A stretch of 64,000 nucleotides of DNA from Apoderus coryli (lineage: Eukaryota; Arthropoda; Insecta; Coleoptera; Attelabidae), in contig OU452200.1 in assembly GCA_911728435.2 (NCBI GenBank), positions 34,797,715 to 34,861,714 on the forward strand, in the 5' to 3' direction. A program made the translations under genes and the position numbers. The notes under the pieces are model-generated. The model was not told the origin of the DNA and ran no database searches. It saw only the letters and a list, made by a program, of their open reading frames with translations. Below, in pieces: positions 1,830-53,764 of the stretch (position 1 is the first letter of the stretch; each line of letters starts with the position of its first letter).

Positions 1830-2922
1830 AAAAAAACATTTCCCAATATTAAAAACAACTACGAAATAATAAAACAATTTTAGCCAATTTAAATTTGTTG
1901 CTGTCGAAGTTTTTTTTATTGTTGCAAATAGTAGTTTTGTTTCATACTGAATTATCAATATAACCTTCCGCCATCGAATATTAACTATATACAAGAAGGT
2001 TCACTTGACGCTGAAAACGACATCGACTCGTCGCATTCTCAGCTCGTTTCTGGTCCCACTACTATATATACTATATCTATATTTACTATAAGATACTATA
2101 TTCCTTATTTTAACTTCCGCCACACTTGACGATTTCCACCCCCGCCGTGTCTTTTTAACTTTAAACAATGTTAAATCACCTGCGGAATTAACAGCAAGAA
2201 GACTCGTATGGGTGGACGTGCAACGTGGAGTGTGGGGGTGCCCAATGTTCCTAGAGGGTAAAAATCGATACGCAACTGAAGAAATTGTTACAACTTTTAA
2301 CAATAAGAATTGTCCTGATTGAAATATCTGACTTGTTTATAATCTTTGCGAAAAAAGCTAATTCCATAATGTTTCGTTTGCAAGTCTTTTTATGTTATTC
2401 CATATTCGTATATGCCATAATTTTCAAGTTCCAATGCATTATATTTTCGTTTCTTATTTTACCTGAATTTTACTGGCATATAAACAAGATTATTTGCCTT
2501 TAAATCGGATATAAAGATATGACTTTATAGAAATGATAAAACAACAATAATTATAATGAACACGTAATAATATAAATTATACAATGTGGCTGAATGTGGG
2601 GGCTAAGGTAGGGAATCTTTTTATAGCTAATATTGCATACCTAAGTGTATAATCCCCATTTACCATACAATATACGAAAATTAAATACAGTGTGACCCAA
2701 GGAGAACAGGGTTTTTTCGAAGACGTAATGTACGTTTACCTACGAGCACTACTGTAAATACTTAAAAACACACCGTCTCCGATCAATGTAAGATTCCTAT
2801 TACGTACGGTAAAAAAATCGTACAGTTTTGCTAGCAACTTATTCAAAAACTGACATAATCTTAAATCAAATTTGTATGTGAGTGTAATATTATAAAGTGA
2901 AATTAGTTTGATTACATAAAAA
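1830..2922. other. unassigned; GC-richer island at 1985-2290
   Basis: Mostly AT-rich with nothing recognisable. About 1985-2290 is noticeably richer in G+C and can be read as a 100-residue open frame on the minus strand, but the protein resembles nothing I know. It could be a piece of an unrelated element or of a host transcript. Confidence 0.35.
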
Positions 2923-4068
2923 ATGTCGAGTGACAGTGAAATAGAAAATTTAACTCCACCCAATATTAGCGAAATTGCAGAAGCTGCTAAAAACAACTTG
3001 TTACCGGCAAAATCTGAATATCGATACAAATTTACTTACCAAAGATTCATGGAATGGAGATTAAAAAACGACGTTAAATCATTTTCCGAGAATGTAATTA
3101 TGGCATATTTCCAAGAACTGTCAAAAACGATGAAGCCTTCCTCACTTTGGTCATTTTACTCAATGTTAAAGGCCACAATTAATGTAAATCACAATGTCGA
3201 TATTGCAAACTACTCCAAATTACAAGCTCTACTGAAGAGAAAATCGGACGGCTTTAAATCCAAAAAATCCAAGATTTTGACAAGCAAGAATATAAACGAT
3301 TTTCTAGAAAACGCACCAGATGAGAAATATTTGTTTATGAAGGTAATATATGAGCTCAATATAATGTTAGATGTGTAAATTTATTTCAAATCGTCTTTTA
3401 GGTTGCTCTTATAATTGGTATAAGCGGTGCATGCAGGAAACAAGAGTAATATAAAACCGTCAGATATTCAAGACACAGGGAAGAATCAAATTATTCATAT
3501 TCCCGATTCAAAAACTAAACGGCTACGTTCTTGTGTGCGGTGAATATTTTTACCCTAAGGTTAAAAAATATATAAACTTTCGCTCTGCAGTAAATACAGC
3601 TCCAAATTTACCTTTTTTCTCAACTATATAAACGGAAAATGTACCAAACAGTCTGTTGGTATTAACAAGTTAGGAAAGATTCCAAAACAAACAGCCATAT
3701 ATCTGGGACTACCAGAAGCAGCGACTTATACAGGACACTGTTTTCGACGCTCGTCCGCGACTATTCTTGTTGACGCGGGTGGTGACTTATTAGATTTAAA
3801 AAGACACGGCGGATGGCAGTCATCAGCCATAGCTGAAGGGTATGTGGATAATTCCCTAAATAATCAAACTAACAATTCGCCTAAAATATCATCTGCAATA
3901 GCAAGTACTAGTAATACTCGTAGTACTAATAGTATTAATGAAAATTTCATTGAGGCAAGTAATAATGTAAATCTTACTTATGTTTCAACAAGCAAAACAA
4001 ACGAGATACCTTTTGTCTTCAATAATTGTTCTGTAACTATAAATAATTATTATAATAAGAATAAATAA
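2923..4068 (+). pseudogene. Crypton-like tyrosine recombinase, frameshifted
   Basis: Tyrosine recombinase of the insect Crypton-like type, which integrates DNA through a covalent tyrosine intermediate. Exon 1 (2923-3342, 140 codons from ATG) encodes the N-terminal/core-binding region (YRYKFTYQRFMEWR, KPSSLWSFYSMLK). A GT-AG intron lies at 3343-3401 in phase 0. Exon 2 begins VALIIGISGACRKQE, supplying the first catalytic Arg, and then hits a stop near 3447 that a 1-nt shift bypasses. Other frames continue with IIHIPDSKTKR, then GHCFRRSSATILVDAGGD (H-x-x-R), LKRHGGW and EGYVDNS with the catalytic Tyr. The tail is Asn/Ser-rich and ends in NNYYNKNK. All catalytic positions persist, but at least three frameshifts or stops break the reading frame. 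A second fragment is at 47.0 kb. Confidence 0.82.
3343..3401 (+). other. intron of the recombinase pseudogene
   Basis: Starts GTAATA after ATGAAG and ends in a pyrimidine-rich TCTTTTAG. Removing it joins ...FMK to VALIIGISGACR, the expected recombinase order, in phase 0. Confidence 0.7.
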
Positions 4069-8888: not shown

Positions 8889-8964
8889 AGCTCTTTAAAG
8901 TTCGGTTAATGTTCACTGTTTAAATGAATAAAATACAAAAAATCTCGATGGCAGCTAGTCGGGT

Positions 8965-10530
8965 ACCCAAAAATATAACACACTTTCAAAAATTTTAGAA
9001 AAAATTATGGAACGGCAAATGTCATCATTTTTAATTACAAATGAAATTTTGCCTGCTTTCCAATCGGGCTTTCGTAAAGGCTTTAGCTGCTCTACAGCAT
9101 TATCTCAATTGACGGATGATATATTTCACGCTTTGGATAGTGGCAGGGCTGTCATTTTGGTTCTGCTTGATTTTAGTAAAGCATTCGATCTACTTAATCA
9201 TGATATCCTTGCTGCTATGTTGAATTATTTTGGTTTCAGCGTAGAGTCAAGAGGTTTGTTGAGATCATTCCTCACGGGTTGTTCTCAGTGTGTTGTGAGC
9301 GATGAGCATATGTCTAGGAAGAGATCAGTTCTGTCTGGTGTGCCGCAGGGTAGTGTTCTGGGTTTATAGTCTGTATTCGTCTGTTTTTGTCAGAGATTTA
9401 GAATTTTGTAAATATCATTTGTATGCAGATGATACACAGATTTATAGTGCCTTTAACCCGGTAGACGCTGCGGTGGCCGTGGATCGTATAAATCGGGACC
9501 TGAGGAGAATACATCAAATATCCCGTGTTCATTTGTTAAAATTAAACACGAATAAAACCATTTGTATGCTGTTTTGTGGCGATAATGTAAGAAATAAAAT
9601 TCAACAAAATGCCCTTGAATGGGATGGAGACATTTTGGTTTTCCAGGAAGGAGCAAAGAACTTGGGACTTGTTCTGGATCACAAGCTGCGATTCAAGGAC
9701 CATATAACATCAAAACTTAAAATCGGATATGGAATGTTAAAAAAATTATACCCTCACCGATATTCGTTAAATGTAACCTTGAAGATTCGTATGTGTGATG
9801 CTCTTGTCTTATCGCACTTAAACTACTCTGACAGCATCTACGGTCCTTGTCTTGATAGTGTGGACAGAGGGAGAGTTCAGAAGTTGCAGAACTCTTGATT
9901 GCTGTTCATATTTGGCATTCGAAGAAGACATCGCATACCTCACAAACTTAAGGAGGCAGGTTGGTTGAATATGTATAACAGACGCATTCACCATTCAACA
10001 TGCTTCTTTTACAAAATAATAAAATATAAAACCCCTCCTTACCTGGTTAATAGAATTGTGTATAGAACTGATGTGCATAATCTAAACATCAGACGTAAAA
10101 GTCTAATAACAGTCCCTGTTCATAAAAAGGAAATATTTAAAAGATCGTTCTCTTATAATGTCGCCACGCCAGTTAACCGGTTTGTCATTAAGGATTTCTC
10201 TCAGAGTTTGGATGTGTTCAGATCTACGATTAAAAAGATATTGCTTGACAGCGTTTAGGCATTTCATTTGGGCATTTTGTTTGCACTGTTTTTAACCCAA
10301 CACTTTATTTTTGTATACTTATCTGTTTTAATATTGTATTTATTGTGTAGTACTGATTTTTTTTTGTATTTTTTCTTGTGTATTGTTTCTTGGGCTTCAA
10401 CAGCACTCAACCTAGTTGAGACGCTGAGATTTCACGCCCTTTAGTTCTAATTGTTGTAATAATACATTTTTTGTAAAATTTATGTAATACCTTTTAGAAC
10501 TAATAAACATATATTATTATTATTATAATA
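8965..10530 (+). pseudogene. Jockey-type non-LTR retrotransposon, 5'-truncated
   Basis: 3' half of a LINE-like element that copies itself by target-primed reverse transcription. The frame opens with TLSKILEKIMERQM (RT block 0/1), then AFQSGFRKGFSCSTA, LLDFSKAFDLLNHD (palm motif A) and LSGVPQGSVLGL, where a frameshift or stop near 9367 breaks it. Another frame resumes with YHLYADDTQIY (motif C, catalytic Asp pair), AKNLGLVLDHKLRFKDHI and VLSHLNYSDSIYGP, with a stop at 9897. The C-terminal domain follows (9899-10258: FGIRRRHRIPHKLKEAGWL, FKRSFSYN). The 3' UTR ends in TTATTATTATTAT near 10527. Catalytic motifs are present but the endonuclease domain, ORF1 and the 5' end are gone. The family also occurs at 34.3-35.1, 42.1-42.8 and 63.6-64.0 kb. 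Confidence 0.88.
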
Positions 10531-20747: not shown

Positions 20748-20947
20748 TATGAGTCGCGCTTACTGGGAATTCCTCGGTCATGGGGAATAATTGCAAGCCC
20801 AATCCCTAGCACGAAGGAGGTTCAGCCGGTTACCCGATCCGCTCGGACAAGAAGGACACGCTGATTCCTTCAGTCTAGCGCTCGGGCGGACCAGAACATC
20901 TCAGGGCATCACAGACCTATGTTTGATCATTCTCGTGCAGCTAGAAG
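20691..20947 (-). rRNA. 18S rRNA 3'-region fragment (pseudogene)
   Basis: The minus strand contains hallmarks of the 3' domain of eukaryotic small-subunit rRNA: TTTGTACACACCGCCCGTCG, GGAATTCCCAGTAAGCGCGA, CCTTCGTGCTAGGGATTGGG, CTGAAGGAATCAGCGTGTCC and the inverse of AGGGCATCACAGACCT. About 257 bp survive with scattered substitutions and small indels (for example near 20815-20900). The rest of 18S and the 5.8S/28S genes are absent, so this is an isolated retro- or transposed fragment and not part of an rDNA unit. It abuts a reverse transcriptase fragment in the same orientation. Confidence 0.93.
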
Positions 20948-22326: not shown

Positions 22327-23401
22327 TTACATTAACAAATGTTGAAAATGTGACCCATTTGATTCCATACAATAATACAGATTTTGTTCAAATCTATTTC
22401 TAACATTTTGTAGCATATCAGGTGTTATGTTTCTGCACTCTTCTGGAATGCGTTGGCGAAGATCTTCTATGGACTCGGGCTTCGTGGCAAAACATTTATT
22501 TTTTAAGTGCCCCCAAAGAAAAAAGTCTAAAGGCGATAAATCCGGTGACCTGGCAGGCCATTCAATTGGGCCCCTCCTTCCAATCCACCGTCCAGGGAAC
22601 CGGTCATCTAAGAACTGTCTTACAGGAGCCACATAGTGCGGAGGTGCTCCATCTTGCTGGAAATAAAGCCGATCAGCAGTATGATTTTGGTCATCTTCTA
22701 TTATTTGTGTTATTAAAGGATCAATTGTGTCTTCAAGCATGTTTAGGTACACTTCACCAGTTAAATTTCCAGGAATAAAAAGTGGTCCTATAATATGATT
22801 TCCTAATATGCCACACCAGACGTTTATTTTTTGAGGATACTGGGTATGAACCTCACGGAATAAATGTGGGTTACTGTCATCCCAGTAACGGCAATTGTGC
22901 CTATTTACAGCTCCATTCAAATAAAATGTGCATTCGTCGGAAAAACAAATGTTAAATAATAATTGCGGATCTTCAATTAAACGCTGGCTCATTGCTTCAC
23001 AAAATTGCAGCCTTCTATCAGGATCATCCTCATTTAGTTCCTGTACTAATTTGATTTTGTACGGATGAAATTTGTACGCTTTTAAAATTCGTATTATGGA
23101 CGAACGGGAGACACCTGAGGCTTCAGCTAGTTGACGGGTACTTTGACTATGATCCATTTCAACATGCCCTAAAACAGCGACTTCCACAGCTTCATTTCTG
23201 ATCGGTTTCTGCGGCTGGTGTTTTACATTACAGACAGATCCGGTATCTACAAACTTTTTAACTAACTTGCCAACGTACACATCATTCACATTTTTATCGG
23301 GATGTCTCTCATTAAATAAGCGAGCCGTTAAGTCTAGCACTACTATTATTTTGAAAATAAAGTTTAACAATTTCAACTCGTTCTAGAATGGAATAAATCA
23401 T
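22327..23401 (-). CDS. DD41D transposase, N-terminal frameshift
   Basis: Catalyses excision and integration of its element at TA. From the Met at 23376 there are 349 codons ending at 22327, but the first residues before LTARLFNERHPDKN look unnatural. An ATG at 23401 in another frame gives MIYSILERVEIVKLYFQ and ...SSAR before a stop, and a single 1-nt shift near 23335 joins it to LTARLFNE. The helix-turn-helix region follows (TRQLAEASGVSRSSIIRIL). Catalytic blocks are CFSDECTFYLNG (first Asp), YFQQDGAPPHYVAP (second Asp) and ARSPDLSPLDFFLWGHL (third Asp). Counting between the second and third Asp gives 41 residues, hence DD41D as in the rosa and Visitor groups. The whole catalytic core is open; only the N-terminal shift argues against activity. 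Confidence 0.92.
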
Positions 23402-37399: not shown

Positions 37400-38842
37400 C
37401 TTTAATATTGATTTATAATAAATAAATGAGGTATCAAAAAATGGTTATAACTTTAATAACTTCGGAATTCTCGCGTATTTACAATAACCTGTGTAACGAT
37501 ATCTCTTTGTCTCAACATGGATTTATGAATCATAGATCTACAATTACTAATCTTACACACATTACACAAGAGATATCGGAAACCTTGGATTGTGGTGGGC
37601 AAATGGATGTGGTATACACCGATTTTTCGAAGGCGTTTGACAGAATGGATCACGGTGTGTTGGTTAAAAAGTTAAATCAATTTGGGTTCCCGAATACCCT
37701 GCTTAGACTAGTAGTGTCTTACTTGAGTGGCCGCAGTCAATTGGTTTATTATAACGGACATACATCCGATGATTATACAATGACATCGGGGGTTCCGCAG
37801 GGCTTCAATTTGGGTCCCCTGCTATTTATCAATGACCTAGTCGAAACTAGTCAGGCAGGGAAGCTTTTGTTTGCTGATGATCTTAAAATTTTTAAACCTA
37901 TTACAGCTAAGTTGGATTGCTTGGCGTTGCAGAACAATCTTAATAACTTGTGCGACTGGTCTGACATAAACAAACTATCGCTAAATATAGCAAAGTGTAA
38001 ATACGTCACTTACTCTCGGAAGAAGAAATTAATTGTAAATTTATATACACTGAACGGCATTTGTTTGTCCCGATCAGACTTGGTTACTGACCTCGGAGTG
38101 ATATTAGATTCGAGACTCACATTTAATGAGCACATTAAAACCAGAATTCAGGAAGTTGTATGTATGGCTTCTTAGTGCGAAGTTGTAAGGGCTTTGTGAG
38201 TGTCGTTGCTCTTATTGCCCTTTATTTTGGCTATGTTCGCTCTAAATTAGAGTATGGATCTATCATTTGGTCCCCATTTTATTCATATCATAAGCAGTCA
38301 ATAGAAAAAATACAACATAGATATTTGGTCTGGAAGCAGGAGGGCGCTTATCCAACTCGAGGATATGATCAGGGACTTCTTTTAGCTCGATTTTCAATGC
38401 AAAGTATTGAACCTCGTCGTGTTTTGTCATCTTTAATGTTTTTGTATAATATTCTCCATAACATGGTGGATTGTTCTTATATTCTTTCAAAACTAAACTA
38501 TAATATTCCCAGAATTTCCACTAGACATGATTGTTTGTTTAGATGTGAGCGTGCTAGGACTAATTGCTAGGACTAATGTTCGCTTGAGATCCCCAGTCTA
38601 TGTAATGACTGTTAAATTTAATGAATTCAGCCACTGTTTTGATATATTTTTTGATAGTGTTAGTAAATTAGAACGTGTTGTTCATGCGGTTATGGAATTT
38701 TGATGTTCTTTTTTTTTCTTGAATTAAATCTAGAATTTAAGATACGAACCTAATAAAGTTTTTGTATCTATGAATTGTCCTGTAAAGGGATTTTGTAAAT
38801 CTGTTGGGCAATAAAGCTATTATTATTATTATTATTATTAAT
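37400..38842 (+). pseudogene. Jockey-type non-LTR retrotransposon, 5'-truncated, long RT frame
   Basis: The best-preserved reverse transcriptase. 37426-38175 is open for 249 codons: LSQHGFMNHRSTITNL, VVYTDFSKAFDRMDHG (motif A), TMTSGVPQGFNLGPLLF (motif B, S changed to F), GKLLFADDLKIFK (motif C, catalytic Asp pair), LSLNIAKCKYVTYSRK, DLVTDLGVILDSRLTF. A shifted frame at 38160-38570 continues IALYFGYVRSKLEYGSIIWS and IEKIQHRYL. The 3' UTR ends in (TTA)n at 38818-38842. It differs from the 9-kb family (FADDLK versus YADDTQ). The endonuclease and ORF1 are missing and two frameshifts are visible. Confidence 0.88.
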
Positions 38843-39656: not shown

Positions 39657-41894
39657 GACAGGGTGATTCATTATGGTTGCAACAAAAGAAAACTGGAGAT
39701 TGCTGAAAGTGATTTAAGCATTTTTTGCCATTGAACCCATGTCCGCAAATGCTTCATTATCGAGATACAGGGTGTCCAAATTTAGTAGTCAAATTAATTT
39801 CTTCTTCTTCTTCTTCTTCTTATTCATTTCTCAAAAACTAGCTAATCGATTTCGACAAAATTTTACATGCATTTGGAGACGGATAACCTAAAATAATCTG
39901 CATTATTTTGGCTTTCATTAAATATTCATTGGCGTAGATATAGGGGGCATTTGGGTAAATTTTAAACATAAATTAATTAAAGACAGCTTTGACAAGCTTC
40001 ATTATTTTAAATTATTACTTTTTTAAAAAGAGCAACTTATAAGCTACAAAAAAGTTAATTACATCGATGTTGTGATTTTTACCATTTCTATGGAAACCGA
40101 TAAATTGCAAGTTAATGGTAGATTTAAATCAAAATAACGTTTACCAGAAAACCAAATAAAAAATCAAAGTTGCCATGGAAAACGAATGCCGCAACAATAA
40201 AAAAAAACTATAACAGCAACAAATTTAAATTAGTTAAAATTGTTTTATTATTTCGTAGTTGTTTTTAATATGGCGAATGTTTTTTCTAAATTAAAATGAG
40301 TTTTTCAATTGAAGAATATGTTTGTGTAATGCAAATGCAAGAAGAGCGGCCAGAGAATACCAAATTAGGTATCCTAATAGACGTCATCCATATCACAAAA
40401 CATGGACGGCTACATTTCACAGGCTTAGAACGATAGGGAGCATTTTACCTAGAGTTAACAAACGACCGCATCGTTTAAATATTCAAACTGAAGAAAACAT
40501 AGTGGATTTAGTTTTAGACGATCCGAAAATAAGCACTAGAAGAATACCAACTCAATTGGCATTACCTCGAACAATTGTTTGGAGACTATTAAATCGAGAA
40601 ATGCTCTATCTCTATCATCATCAAGATGTCCAGGCCCTACATCCTGGAGACCGTGAAAGGCGCCTACTATTTTGTAATTGGGTTCTTGGTAAGCATCAAG
40701 AAGATGAAAGATTATTAGAGAAAGTGCTCTGGTCAGATGAAGCAACTTTTACTAGAGAAATACAAAGCATAATGAACATGTATAGTCTTTAAACAACCCT
40801 CGTGCTATTAGGCCGCGAAATTTTCAAGAACGTTTTAATATCAATGTTTTGGGGTGGCATGTTTAACAATAAATTTTTGCCGTTGTTTGTAATTAATGGG
40901 CATTTAAACTCAAATCAATACAGTCTTTTCCTACACAACCCCCTGCCCGAATTTATTGAGGATGTACCTCTGAATATTGTTCAAAATATGTGGTATCAAC
41001 ATGACGGAGCCCCTACGCACCGTTGTAGACAAGTAACTAAAGTTTTAAATCAACTGTTTGGAAACAATTTGATTAGTTTGGGAGGTTCCATTGAGTGGCC
41101 TACAAGATCACCGGATGTGAATCCGCTCGACTTCTTTTTATGGGGGTACATGAAACAATTGGTTTACAGTGTACCAATTATAAATGAAAACCAACTACTG
41201 GAGATAGTTCATGAAGCTGCTAGGAAAATAAGAAACAATCATAATATCCTTATTAGAGCTACAAATTCATTAGTTAAAAGATGTAAAATGTGCATTACTG
41301 TCAATGGAGGGCAGTTTGAACAGTTGTTATTAATTTTCTTATTTTAATATCGAGTTTAGTTTTTTTATTGTTAAATTTTTAATTGTACTTTGTTGTTAAG
41401 TAATTTTTTATTATTAAATCATTTTCCACGGCAACTTTGATTTTTCATTTTGATTTCTGGGAAACGTTATTTTGATTTAAATCTACCATTAACTTGCAAT
41501 TTATCGGTTTCCATAAAAATGGTAGAAACCACAACATCGACATATTTAACTTTTTTGTAGCTTATAAGTTGTTCTTTTTAAAAAAGTAATAATTTAAAAT
41601 AATGAAGCTTGTCAAAGCTGTGTTTAACTAATTTATGTGTAAAATTTATCCAAATGCCCCCTATATCTACGCCAATGAACAGTTAATGACAGTCAAAATA
41701 ATTCAGAATATTTTAAAATCAGTTAGCTAGTTTTTGAGAACTGAACAAAAAAGTTAAGTTGACCACTAAATTTGGACACCCTGTATCCTGATAACGAAGC
41801 ATTTGCGGACATGGGTTCAATGGCAAAAAATGCTTGAATTGTTTTCAGGAATGTCCAGTTTTTGTTTGTTGCAACCATAATGAATCACCCTGTA
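39657..41894 (+). mobile_element. second DD41D element, copy 1, both ends present
   Basis: The left end CAGGGTGATTCATTATGGTT (39659) and right end AACCATAATGAATCACCCTG (41873-41892) are inverse, with TA flanks. Inner TIR blocks include TTTGCGGACATGGGTTCAAT (right), also found inverted at the left, and an internal second CAGGGTGTCCAAATTTAGT end. TIRs are roughly 450-600 bp. The left arm has a (TTC)n expansion at 39799-39819. One transposase pseudogene inside. Confidence 0.9.
40296..41347 (+). pseudogene. DD41D transposase, copy 1
   Basis: The probable start MSFSIEEYVCV at 40296 is followed by a shift into NARRAAREYQIRYPNRRHPY. The helix-turn-helix region runs to IPTQLALPRTIVWRLLNREM, then LEKVLWSDEATFTR (first Asp). 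A 7-nt loss relative to copy 2 and a shared TAG (40783-40785) disrupt the middle. The frame at 40802-41347 gives WYQHDGAPTHRCRQ (second Asp) and TRSPDVNPLDFFLWGYM (third Asp), and ends NGGQFEQLLLIFLF. The spacing between second and third Asp is 41 residues. All three catalytic residues survive, split between frames. Confidence 0.9.
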
Positions 41895-47498: not shown

Positions 47499-49097
47499 AC
47501 AAAATTTTACATGCATTTGGGGCCCGATAACCTAAAATAATCTGCATTATTTTGGCTTTCATTAACTGTTGATTGGCGTAGATATAGGGGGCATTTGGGT
47601 AAAATTTACACATAGATTAATTAAAGACAGCGTTGACAAGCTTCATTATTTTAAATTATTACTTTTTTAAAAAGAGCAACTTATAAGCTACAAAAAAGTT
47701 AATTACGTCGATGTTCTGATTTCTACCAGTTTTATGGAAACCGAGAAATTGCAAGTTAATGGTTGATTTACATCGAAATAACGTTTACCAGAAAACCAAA
47801 GTTGCCATGGAAAACGAATGCCGCAACAATAAAAACTTTGACAAATTTAAATTAGTTAAAATTGTTTTATTATTTCGTAGTTGTTTTTAATATTGCGACC
47901 GCATCTTCTAAATATTTAAACTGAAGAAAACATAGTGGATTTAGTTTTAGACGATCCGAAAATAAGCACTAGAAGAACACCAACTCAATTGGCATTACTT
48001 CGAACAACTGTTTGGAGAGTATTAAATCGAGAAATGCTCTATCTCCATCATAATCAAGATGTCCAGGCCCTACATCCTGGAGACCGTGAAAGGCGCCTAC
48101 GATTTTGTCATTGGGTTCGTGGTAAGCATCAAGAAGATGAAAGATTTTTAGAGAAAGTGCTCTGGTCAGATGAAGCAACTTTTACTAGAGATGGCATACA
48201 TACAAACCATAATGAACATGTATAGTCTTTAAACAACCCTCGTGCTATTAGGCCGCGAAATTTTCAAGAACGTTTTAGTATCAATGTTTGGGGTGGCATG
48301 TTTAACAATAAATTGTTGCCGTTGTTCGTAATTAATGGGCATTTAAACTCAAATAAATACAGTCTTTTCCTACACAACCGCCTACCCGAATTTATTGAGG
48401 ATGTACCTATGAATATTGTTCAAAACATATGGTATCAACATGACGGAGCCGCTGCGCACTGTGGTAGACAAGTAACAGAAGTTTTAAATCAACTGTTTGG
48501 AAATAATTGGATTGGTTTGGGAGGTTCCATTGAGTGGCCTCCAAGATCACCGGATCTGAATCCGCTCGACTTCTTTTTATGGAGGCACTTGAAACAATTG
48601 TTTACAGTGTACCAATTATAAATGAAAACCAACTACTGGAGATAGTTCATGAAGCTGCTAGCAAAATAAGAAACAATCATAATATCCTTATTAGAGCTAC
48701 AAATTCATTAGTTGAAAGATGTAGAATGTGCATTACTGTCAATGGAGGGCAGTTTGAACAGTTGTTATTAATTTTCTTATTTTAATTCCGAGTTTAGTTT
48801 ATTTATTGTTAAATTTTTAATTTTACTGATAGGCCTTAAAATTTGTTGTTAAGTAATTTGTTATTATTAAATCGTTCTCCACGGCAACTTTGATTTCTCA
48901 TTTTGATTTCTGGTAAACGTTATTTTGATTTTGAGAAATGAACAAAAAAGTTAATTTGACCACTAAATTTGAACACCCTGTATCTCGATAACGAAGCATT
49001 TGCGGACATGGGTTCAATGACAAAAAATGCTTGAATTGTTTTCAGGAATCTCCAGTTTTCGTTTGTTGCAACCATAATGAATCACCCTGTATATTAT
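47499..49097 (+). mobile_element. second DD41D element, copy 2, left end lost
   Basis: Homologous to 39657-41894 from ACAAAATTTTACATGCATTT onward; about 200 bp of the left TIR are missing. Ends ACCATAATGAATCACCCTGT at the right. Relative to copy 1 it has lost about 190 bp around the start codon (the junction shares GCGA) and about 250 bp of the right TIR. Confidence 0.88.
47915..48785 (+). pseudogene. DD41D transposase, copy 2
   Basis: One frame runs from about 47915 (IVDLVLDDPKISTRRTPTQL, VWRVLNREMLYLHHNQDVQA, LEKVLWSDEATFTRDG) to 48621, with a single in-frame TAG at 48223-48225 where relatives have Trp. It continues PRAIRPRNFQERFS, VWGGMFNNKLLPLFVINGHL, WYQHDGAAAHCGRQVTEV (second Asp) and PPRSPDLNPLDFFLWRHLK (third Asp). 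A shift near 48595 moves the C-terminus (NGGQFEQLLLIFLF) to another frame ending at 48785. The N-terminal DNA-binding half is deleted. Better conserved than copy 1 in the catalytic core. Confidence 0.9.
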
Positions 49098-51260: not shown

Positions 51261-51384
51261 TTAACCTTCTAATACAGGGTGTTAGTAAATAAGTGCGACA
51301 AACTTCAGGGGGTATTTCTGCATGAAAAAATAATGACAGTTTGCTATATAAACATATGTCCGCAAATGCTTCGTTTTCTGAGAT

Positions 51385-51501
51385 TCTTCTTCTTCTTCTT
51401 CCTGGGCGTGAGCTCGACTGCGAGCATCGTGATCATGGGCTATCTTTTGTAATGGCTTTCCATTGTTGTCGATCTTCGGACAATTTGAATGTTTGTGTTA
51501 A
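51385..51501 (-). mobile_element. 117-bp LINE 3'-end insertion with 12-bp target duplication
   Basis: Flanked by GTTTTCTGAGAT (51373-51384 and 51502-51513). Minus strand: LSEDRQQWKAITKDSP followed by a stop, then a short 3' UTR and a (GAA)n tail. This looks like the last codons and tail of a LINE inserted by target-primed reverse transcription with extreme 5' truncation. The opposite foldback arm has the uninterrupted site. Confidence 0.72.
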
Positions 51502-52423
51502 GTTTTCTGAGATACGGGGTGTTAAAGTTTTTCTTAAAAACTGAAGATTTATTGATTACTCTGAAACCGGTGGAGATATGCAAAAGAAATTTAGTGAGTT
51601 TTAAGAGGTAGTTATTGCGCATTTTTTGGCAAGCAATTAAGAATTTTATGTTCATCAGTGGCACGCATACGGGCAATGATCTCAATATTTTTAAACAAAA
51701 AAATGGTACGCCACTAGAATTTCTCAAATAAAAAATCATTATGATATTCTTCGTTCAATTTGTGATAAAAAATCTCTCTTGCTTTTTTACCGTAGGAGGC
51801 ATCGTCTTTGTGCAAAAAAATAAAACATCTTACCCCGTATTTTTCATTTCTTTAATACATTATCAAGAAGATTAGAAATCTAATACAATAAACATTAAAC
51901 CAAAAGAATAGGAGAAAATAAAACTAATAATAAAGAACCGTTAATTTGACATTTCGTTGAAATATTCGTATTTAACAGAATGTTGACAGTAGCCTACTAG
52001 CGTCGCCGCGAGATGTTCTATTTTTTTGCACAAATGCCCCCGTACAATAAAAAAACAAGAGAGATTTTTTATCACAAATTGAACGAGGAATTCCAAAATG
52101 ATTTTTAATTTGAAAAATTCCAGTGGCGCACCTTTTTTTTTTCAACAAAATTGAGATCATTACCCGTATGCGCGGCACTGATGAACATAAAATTCTTAAA
52201 TGTAAAAGGATGTGTTTGGCGACATCTAGTTTTATTGTTGGTAGTACGCCGAGTGAACACAGTTCCTATATCGACTGCCTGGGAGGTCTCTGACCCCATA
52301 AAGCAACTACCAACACATAGACGCGCCGATACTCCCTTAAGCGGGATCGCATATATTTGGAATGGGCTTGTTTAACAAAACAAGACTTAAAATCCGAGAG
52401 TTTGTCTGTCAACCACTATACTT

Positions 52424-52467
52424 TCACCAGACGGCCGTTTCGTCGATCCACGACTCATCAGTGGTGA
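52424..52467 (-). ncRNA. hammerhead ribozyme, unit 1
   Basis: RNA from the minus strand: UCACCA (stem I), CUGAUGA, stem II GUCG-UGGAU-CGAC, GAAA, then CGGCCG, U, C and UGGUGA (stem I partner). All invariant core residues are present, six perfect stem-I pairs, four stem-II pairs, H17 = C. Predicted cleavage is after C of GGCCGUC. Stem III (ACGGCCGU) is self-complementary with almost no loop, so a dimeric fold is favoured. Confidence 0.85.
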
Positions 52468-52755
52468 TCGGTCAGTAGTTGACAGCCAAACTCTCGTAAA
52501 TAATGTGGTATATACCACAAACGGTACAGAGATGTAAAAGGATGTGTTTGGCGACATCTAGTTTTATTGTTGGTAGTACGCCGAGTGAACACAGTTCCTA
52601 TATCGACTGCCTGGGAGGTCTCTGACCCCATAAAGCAACTACCAACACATAGACGCGCCGATACTCCCTTAAGCGGGATCGCATATATTTGGAATGGGCT
52701 TGTTTAACAAAACAAGACTTAAAATCCGAGAGTTTGTCTGTCAACCACTATACTT

Positions 52756-52799
52756 TCACCAGACGGCCGTTTCGTCGATCCACGACTCATCAGTGGTGA
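52756..52799 (-). ncRNA. hammerhead ribozyme, unit 2
   Basis: Identical to the unit-1 motif, exactly 332 bp further on; a transcript spanning both would be cut into 332-nt monomers. Confidence 0.85.
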
Positions 52800-53058
52800 T
52801 CGGTCAGTAGTTGACAGCCAAACTCTCGTAAATAATGTGGTATATACCACAAACGGTACAGAGATGTAAAAGGATGTGTTTGGCGACATCTAGTTTTATT
52901 GTTGGTAGTACGCCGAGTGTCGATATAGGAACTGTGTTCACTCGGCGTACTACCAACAATAAAACTAGATGTCGCCAAACACATCCTTTTACATCTCTGT
53001 ACCGTTTGTGGTATATACCACATTATTTACGAGAGTTTGGCTGTCAACTACTGACCGA

Positions 53059-53102
53059 TCACCACTGATGAGTCGTGGATCGACGAAACGGCCGTCTGGT
53101 GA
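53059..53102 (+). ncRNA. hammerhead ribozyme, inverted unit 1
   Basis: Same motif on the plus strand: TCACCA, CTGATGA, GTCG/CGAC, GAAA, CGGCCGTC, TGGTGA. Transcription from either strand of the palindrome therefore yields active-looking ribozymes. Confidence 0.85.
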
Positions 53103-53390
53103 AAGTATAGTGGTTGACAGACAAACTCTCGGATTTTAAGTCTTGTTTTGTTAAACAAGCCCATTCCAAATATATGCGATCCCGCTTAAGGGAGTATCGG
53201 CGCGTCTATGTGTTGGTAGTTGCTTTATGGGGTCAGAGACCTCCCAGGCAGTCGATATAGGAACTGTGTTCACTCGGCGTACTACCAACAATAAAACTAG
53301 ATGTCGCCAAACACATCCTTTTACATCTCTGTACCGTTTGTGGTATATACCACATTATTTACGAGAGTTTGGCTGTCAACTACTGACCGA

Positions 53391-53434
53391 TCACCACTGA
53401 TGAGTCGTGGATCGACGAAACGGCCGTCTGGTGA
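53391..53434 (+). ncRNA. hammerhead ribozyme, inverted unit 2
   Basis: 332 bp after the previous plus-strand motif, identical core. The unit is truncated 67 bp further on, at the insertion boundary. Confidence 0.85.
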
Positions 53435-53764
53435 AAGTATAGTGGTTGACAGACAAACTCTCGGATTTTAAGTCTTGTTTTGTTAAACAAGCCCATTCCA
53501 AATAAAATTCTTAATTGCATGTCAAAAAATGCGCAGTAACTATCTCTTAAAACCGACTAAATTTTATTTGCATATCTAAACCGGTTTGAGAGCAATCAAT
53601 AAATCTTCAGTTTTTAAGAAAAACTTTAACTCAGCAGAAAACGAAGCATTTGCGGAATTGTGTTTATATAGCAAACTGTCATTATTTTTTCATGCAGAAT
53701 TATCTCCTGAAGTTTGTCTCACCCTGTATAGTTTTACAGTTTATCTTCTTGGGGATGTAGGACC

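What the first reader, a model, noticed from the sequence alone, without database searches (positions are those of the whole stretch)
52200..53501. Non-coding array of 332-bp units, each with a complete hammerhead ribozyme
Seen: four copies of UCACCA-CUGAUGA-GUCG...CGAC-GAAA-CGGCCGUC-UGGUGA, two on each strand, exactly 332 bp apart on the same strand. Known: hammerheads in tandem repeats occur in metazoan retrozymes and in Penelope-like element termini. Inference: this is a young non-autonomous ribozyme element whose RNA would be cut to 332-nt monomers and could circularise. No associated reverse transcriptase is in the window.
Basis: partly seen in the sequence, partly recalled or inferred. 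Interest (0 to 1): 0.92.

Follow-up and report, generated by a model that had tools for sequence, protein, structure and literature searches.

The report
Ribozyme-carrying mobile element, inserted head-to-head
A 332-letter non-coding mobile element with its own RNA-cutting ribozyme sits here as one recent insertion made of two mirror-image halves, and the way its copies end suggests that they are pasted into the genome by the enzyme of another mobile element, Penelope.

Summary
Observation confirmed. Four identical type I hammerheads (Rfam 33.8 bits, cut-off 34) lie in 332-nt non-coding units. They form one insertion, window 52200-53504: a minus-strand array joined head-to-head to a plus-strand array, with a 10-13 bp target duplication. 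The genome has 2,343 exact ribozyme cores, in at least two related families, A and B. This is a metazoan non-LTR retrozyme, a known kind. What I did not find in print (seven open-access searches) is its insertion rule. Of the independent insertions with both ends readable, 43 of 43 are head-to-head, one arm ending at site 1 and the other at site 2 of the unit. Penelope-like elements in the same genome do likewise: 18 of 18 neighbouring GIY-YIG pairs are head-to-head, and in 4 of 4 examined insertions of one family the arms start at different sites, 30-38 nt apart. Best reading: a Penelope enzyme cuts both target strands, and each primes reverse transcription at a different site of one retrozyme RNA, probably a circle. 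Circles, self-cleavage and the enzyme's role were not tested; no sequence shared by retrozyme and Penelope ends was found.

The parts
52187..52199 (.). left copy of the target-site duplication (13 bp, of which 10 unambiguous)
   Evidence: direct repeat of 53502-53514
52200..52919 (-). left arm, 2.17 tandem units; outer end at site 1 of the unit
52424..52467 (-). type I hammerhead ribozyme
   Evidence: RF00163, 33.8 bits
52756..52799 (-). type I hammerhead ribozyme
   Evidence: RF00163, 33.8 bits
52919..52920 (.). hinge where the two arms meet, 1 nt of overlap
52920..53504 (+). right arm, about 1.77 tandem units; outer end at site 2 of the unit
53059..53102 (+). type I hammerhead ribozyme; expected cut after 53096 (GUC^)
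   Evidence: RF00163, 33.8 bits; cut position by rule, read
53391..53434 (+). type I hammerhead ribozyme
   Evidence: RF00163, 33.8 bits
53502..53514 (.). right copy of the target-site duplication
   Evidence: direct repeat of 52187-52199

Best explanation
A recent insertion of a metazoan non-LTR retrozyme, copied by the machinery of a Penelope-like element (PLE). Inferred first steps: the array is transcribed, the hammerheads cut the RNA into 332-nt monomers, and a host ligase closes them into circles. A PLE protein then uses two start sites on one RNA, 76 and 230 nt after the ribozyme cut in family A; a conserved 110-nt stem between them leaves about 44 nt of effective spacing. It cuts both strands of AT-rich DNA roughly 10-16 nt apart. 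Each target 3' end primes reverse transcription at a different one of the two sites, so both first-strand cDNAs run inward from the flanks; they may go round the circle more than once, which makes the tandem units, and are then joined. Shown by sequence: arm orientation, two fixed end sites with one per arm, target duplications, variants shared by the two arms, and PLEs in the same genome with the same footprint. Inferred: circularity, enzyme identity, and both primings on one molecule.
For: Both ends readable: 27 of 27 independent insertions in the first sample and 16 of 16 in the second are head-to-head with different end sites; chance under independent choice 1.1e-13. Shared flank words of 10 nt or more in 22 of 27, against 1.1% of 702 mismatched pairings. 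Left-arm variants recur in the right arm of the same insertion in 42 of 98 cases against a mean of 7.9% in arms of other insertions. Only 2 of 48 arm 5' ends lie within 2 nt of the ribozyme cut. Among the first 150 scored GIY-YIG places, 18 of 18 neighbour pairs within 6 kb are minus-then-plus; the LINE endonuclease gives 3 of 9. PLE F1: RVT_1 plus GIY-YIG; 4 of 4 insertions have one arm ending 47-53 nt and the other 83-85 nt after the ribozyme cut, duplications 12-14 bp. The Anolis PLE protein cuts and extends both strands and starts reverse transcription internally (PMC11167929).
Against: No sequence shared by retrozyme and PLE F1/F2 ends; the shared CGCCAAA is weak for A (96 of 5000 shuffles) and absent as a signal for B (1313 of 5000). 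Some copies show one resolved end only (13 in the first sample), two of them (L023, L038) with a duplication and no clear second arm; L031 may be homotypic below my threshold. Linear multimers could also give tandem units. Gene conversion between arms could add to shared variants. The LINE control looks at the 5' side of LINE proteins, so it is imperfect. In vitro the Anolis ribozyme was not needed for insertion.
Confidence: 0.74

Rival explanations
1. A LINE with an APE-type endonuclease moves the retrozyme, and the mirror halves are ordinary L1-style twin priming.
For: Twin priming in L1 gives the same arm orientation and similar duplications (recalled). LINEs with long open frames are abundant here.
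Against: The two-site, one-per-arm rule is seen in PLEs of this genome, not looked for in LINEs. Neighbouring LINE endonuclease domains show no orientation preference, 3 of 9 minus-then-plus. No poly-A or simple-repeat 3' end at the retrozyme ends printed.
Confidence: 0.12
2. PLE machinery, but with self-priming (snap-back copying) making the second arm, as was suggested for rotifer PLEs from an antisense template.
For: Inverted arms and palindromic joints in rotifer PLEs led to this proposal (PMC3846280, passages).
Against: Copying back from one cDNA should give two arms ending at the same site; 0 of 43 two-ended insertions do, and 0 of 4 PLE F1 insertions.
Confidence: 0.05
3. Twin priming by a PLE enzyme, but on two separate RNA molecules or on a linear multimeric transcript rather than on one circle.
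For: Arrays in the genome could be transcribed as multimers; multimeric retrozyme RNAs exist in axolotl (PMC7229834).
Against: The strict one-of-each use of two sites and the shared variants (42 of 98 against 7.9%) favour one template molecule, though identical units of one array would also share variants.
Confidence: 0.2
4. Ordinary satellite DNA or a DNA transposon with long inverted repeats that happens to contain a hammerhead motif.
For: Tandem units and long inverted repeats are present.
Against: Copies are dispersed (the 100 listed cores on C1 form 72 clusters), are flanked by duplications of varied length and sequence, and end inside the unit at two different fixed positions; the fold is kept with two-sided changes.
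Confidence: 0.02

Closest known systems
Metazoan non-LTR retrozymes with type I hammerheads (Cervera and de la Pena 2020, PMC7229834; abstract and sections 13, 14, 15, 17 read)
   Same: Type I hammerhead, non-coding tandem units of a few hundred bp, G+C below 50%, duplications longer than 4 bp, PLEs in the same genome; axolotl units of 330 bp with a one-pair helix III and palindromic tetraloop resemble the CGGCCG helix III here.
   Different: Different sequence and host; in the sections read I saw no account of head-to-head insertions, fixed start sites or a one-site-per-arm rule.
Penelope-like elements with GIY-YIG endonuclease (PMC11167929 main text; PMC3846280 passages)
   Same: Head-to-head ends, duplications of about 8-14 bp, two start sites with an optional tail on one arm, hammerhead upstream of the start sites.
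   Different: The retrozyme encodes no protein, and its two sites are 154 nt apart in sequence (about 44 nt if the stem between them is skipped) against 30-38 nt in PLE F1 here.
Plant LTR retrozymes (PMC7761336 passages; PMC7229834)
   Same: Non-autonomous, ribozyme-carrying, thought to move through circular RNA.
   Different: Type III hammerheads in LTRs, primer binding site and 4-bp duplications; none of that is seen here.

Membership tests
Metazoan non-LTR retrozyme | Type I hammerhead | tested here: met
   RF00163, 33.8 bits, E 3.3e-6, 0.2 bits under the curated cut-off
Metazoan non-LTR retrozyme | Non-coding tandem units of about 150-450 bp | tested here: met
   332-bp units, identical; no long frame
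Metazoan non-LTR retrozyme | Target duplication longer than 4 bp | tested here: met
   13-bp direct repeat here; 10 nt or more in 22 of 27 two-ended insertions
Metazoan non-LTR retrozyme | No LTR, primer binding site or polypurine tract | tested here: inconclusive
   No LTR-like arrangement in the repeats found; primer sites not searched for
Metazoan non-LTR retrozyme | Autonomous PLEs with hammerheads in the same genome | tested here: met
   PLE F1 with RVT_1 and GIY-YIG and a hammerhead-like motif (not listed by Rfam)
Metazoan non-LTR retrozyme | Expressed as self-cleaved linear and circular RNA | not testable with these tools
   No RNA data
Penelope-like element | Own reverse transcriptase and GIY-YIG endonuclease | tested here: not met
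   The unit is non-coding
Penelope-like element | Head-to-head arms with target duplication and paired start sites | tested here: met
   43 of 43 two-ended insertions; so it works like a PLE insertion without being a PLE
Plant LTR retrozyme | Type III hammerhead in LTRs and 4-bp duplication | tested here: not met
   Type I hammerhead; duplication of 10-13 bp

The most novel reading that the evidence does not exclude
Animal retrozymes are SINE-like parasites of Penelope elements. Their RNA circle imitates the PLE start region by holding two priming sites near each other across a conserved stem. Integration is obligatory two-strand priming, one target strand per site on one RNA molecule. The same rule explains the inverted arms and the one-sided tail of PLEs, and speaks against self-priming.
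Probability: 0.58. Interest if true: 0.78.

Novelty: new variant of a known kind. Interest (0 to 1): 0.66.

Why it matters
What moves animal retrozymes is an open question: the 2020 paper infers PLEs from shared hammerheads, tandem copies and co-occurrence. This genome shows an integration footprint shared by retrozymes and PLEs and turns the question into a direct test with a purified PLE protein and a small circular RNA. It also bears on how PLEs themselves insert: different start sites on the two arms favour priming from both cut strands over copying back from one cDNA.

Tried and rejected
Gathering-threshold Rfam scan of the window: no hammerhead listed, because the scores are 0.2 bits below the cut-off. 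The MIR4208 and mir-190 matches and the miRNA and sRNA matches in PLE F1 lie on long inverted-repeat hinges and are read as artefacts. Pfam PF26215 was not held. Sequence relation between retrozyme and PLE ends: none by blastn; a motif test is weak for A and negative for B. Snap-back self-priming, satellite DNA and a DNA transposon were considered and rejected (see rivals). F2 PLE ends (L091, L092) ran to the edge of what I fetched, so their start sites are unresolved. Clustering of arm 5' ends at site 1 in a few B copies was noticed after the fact and is not used as evidence.

Choices of mine in the counts. First sample (41 C1 loci plus the window): I merged L017, L044, L045 and L046, each split by a later insertion, and accepted second arms of about 10-18 nt in L001, L010 and L026; without these seven it is 20 of 20. 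Dropped: L014 (duplicate of L013); 13 with one end resolved (L011, L012, L018, L020, L021, L023, L025, L027, L028, L031, L032, L038, L047); 4 with neither (L022, L029, L041, L048); and a small separate fragment in L044. Second sample (20): dropped C14b (same flanks as C15a), C101a and C101b (same flanks as C101c, but their right ends lack the site 1 arm), and C15b (one-ended). C18b is counted on a 17-nt site 1 piece; without it, 15 of 15.

Full report
Observation. The window holds four exact copies of the hammerhead core, two on each strand and 332 bp apart on each strand, with none expected in 100 shuffles. With permissive filters Rfam scores each as Hammerhead_1, 33.8 bits and E 3.3e-6, just under the curated cut-off of 34. 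Overlapping copies are identical. The whole is one insertion: a minus-strand array at 52200-52919, a hinge, and a plus-strand array to 53504, with the RNA sense running outward on both sides. It is flanked by a 13-bp direct repeat of which 3 nt may belong to the unit. It landed inside an older element with inverted arms of its own (51521-51649 against 53502-53630).

What it is. The genome is 428 Mb in 129 contigs and holds 2,343 exact matches to the core pattern, 1,171 forward and 1,172 reverse, with 0 in the reversed-pattern control. I read 41 loci of contig C1 (L001; L009-L048). Most fall into family A (332 nt, the window) or family B (336 nt, reference L033), which share a near-identical hammerhead of about 60 nt. 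A search with the window's unit lists 150 of 244 matches; 42 listed rows are full-length at the top score, at 18 loci with the window included, so the element was active recently. The unit is non-coding. The linear RNA folds with z -7.0 against 100 shuffles. In a circular consensus fold of 25 units, 96 pairs are predicted; between the A and B majority 16 change on both sides, 8 on one side, 64 are the same and 8 are broken in one. This matches the metazoan non-LTR retrozymes of PMC7229834 (abstract and sections 13, 14, 15 and 17 read), which reports such repeats in several phyla, insects included.

The insertion rule. Each insertion was cut into arms and its outer ends compared with the unit. 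Unit numbers are those onward, where A1 is window 52919; numbers are one lower for A. Outer ends fall at two places: site 1 (A 71-83, B 65-76) and site 2 (A 247-258, B 240-257); representative ends are 230 and 76 nt after the ribozyme cut in A, and 236 and 82 in B. Part of the spread is overlap with the target. Of 27 insertions with both ends resolved, 27 have site 1 on one side and site 2 on the other. A second sample of 20 insertions on other contigs, chosen from the list and read only at their ends, contains 16 independent two-ended insertions, 16 of them heterotypic. Together 43 of 43; under independent choice the chance is 1.1e-13. Site 1 is on the left in 21 and on the right in 22. Weak points: three of the 27 rest on second arms of about 10-18 nt (L001, L010, L026), four on fragments that I joined across later insertions, and C18b on a 17-nt piece; without these eight it is 35 of 35. 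L031 may be homotypic below my threshold, the duplicate L014 looks homotypic until a short outer piece is read, L028 is unresolved, and L023 and L038 show a duplication without a clear second arm. In the plain list of 100 cores on C1, opposite-strand neighbours within 1 kb are minus-then-plus in 14 cases and plus-then-minus in 0.

Target duplications. The longest shared flank word is 10 nt or more in 22 of 27 two-ended insertions, median 12, against 1.1% of 702 mismatched pairings. In the second sample it is 10 nt or more in 13 of 16, or 14 if the duplicate copy C14b stands in for C15a (no null was run there). Of 24 listed joints between arms (one of them a duplicate), 14 show 1-4 nt of overlap, 6 show 1-13 nt of extra letters, 3 neither, and 1 is ambiguous; chance overlap was not modelled.

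One template. Of 98 left-arm variants against the family majority, 42 recur in the right arm of the same insertion, against a mean of 7.9% in arms of other insertions; in L009, L033 and the window it is 19 of 19. Conversion between arms could add to this. Arms longer than a unit run through the ribozyme cut junction, and 2 of 48 arm 5' ends lie within 2 nt of it, so cut linear monomers are not the usual template. A circle is the simplest template; a linear multimer is not excluded.

The helper. A GIY-YIG search scored 150 of 1,260 candidates. Of neighbouring places within 6 kb, 18 of 18 pairs are minus-then-plus, the head-to-head order. The same count for the LINE endonuclease domain PF14529, 150 of 2,036 candidates scored, gives 3 of 9 (Fisher p 0.0003). 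That control is imperfect because the domain lies on the 5' side of LINE proteins. One PLE family, F1, was read in part: L089 has an open frame of 752 aa, cut short at its 5' side by the hinge, with RVT_1 (5.5e-16) and GIY-YIG and a minimal hammerhead motif near its 3' end found by pattern, which Rfam does not list. In 4 of 4 F1 insertions (C1, C25, C16, C5) one arm ends 47-53 nt and the other 83-85 nt after the ribozyme cut, with duplications of 12-14 bp. So this PLE family follows the same rule of two starts, one per arm.

Agreement with biochemistry. The Anolis PLE protein PAc cuts and extends both target strands and starts reverse transcription internally, 111-118 nt into its frame, with the hammerhead cut 26 nt into it, which makes 85-92 nt after the cut by my subtraction (PMC11167929, abstract and main text). 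That is close to 83-85 in F1, 82 in B and 76 in A. The same paper found that the ribozyme was not needed for insertion in vitro. Rotifer PLEs have head-to-head ends, 8-10 bp duplications and a tail on one arm, and self-priming was suggested for them (PMC3846280, passages only). Different start sites on the two arms are expected if each cut strand primes separately, and not if one cDNA is copied back. In A and B the two sites flank a helix of 110 nt whose core pairs with probability near 1, leaving about 44 nt between the sites if the helix is skipped (positions, my subtraction). This resembles the 30-38 nt between the F1 starts but rests on predicted structure.

What is not shown. Expression, circles, self-cleavage and enzyme identity were not tested. 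No sequence shared by retrozyme and PLE ends was found; a shared CGCCAAA is weak. The statement that the insertion rule is not in print rests on seven searches of open-access papers and on the sections named; supplements were not read, the 2014 paper on PLE hammerheads is not held and the 2017 one was not sought.

Noticed in passing
window 51293-53722: The retrozyme lies inside an older fold-back element with several inverted arms (51521-51649/53502-53630, 51293-51380/53635-53722, 51688-51799/52038-52149).
   Followed up: no
window 20776-20874 (-): A 99-bp fragment of eukaryotic small-subunit rRNA, 50.1 bits against a cut-off of 50.
   Followed up: no
window 22327-23382 (-): Open frame of 351 aa with weak Tc3-type HTH and DDE_3 matches below the curated cut-offs, a Tc1/mariner-like transposase that may be intact; related fragments at 40313-41347 and 48226-48621.
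   Followed up: partly
window 8959-9898 and 37426-38570 (+): LINE-type reverse-transcriptase fragments (RVT_1).
   Followed up: partly
window 2920-4068 (+): Two neighbouring frames with weak tyrosine-recombinase matches below the curated cut-offs.
   Followed up: no
G000 contig C101 (L061, L062, L075-L078): Three insertions with the same flanks on a 152-kb contig, apparently copies of one event; in two of them the right end lacks the site 1 arm.
   Followed up: partly
L010, L025, L026, L047: In these B copies one arm's 5' end lies near site 1 (B65-B69), as if the second reverse transcriptase stopped where the first had started; noticed after the fact, not tested.
   Followed up: no
L014, L019, L030, L039, L071: Within single arms the copy jumps between the site 1 region or its neighbourhood and another part of the unit, which could be template jumps or later deletions.
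   Followed up: no
L048 around 2832: A hammerhead-like core next to a long hairpin, with no match to family A or B; possibly a third, decayed family.
   Followed up: partly
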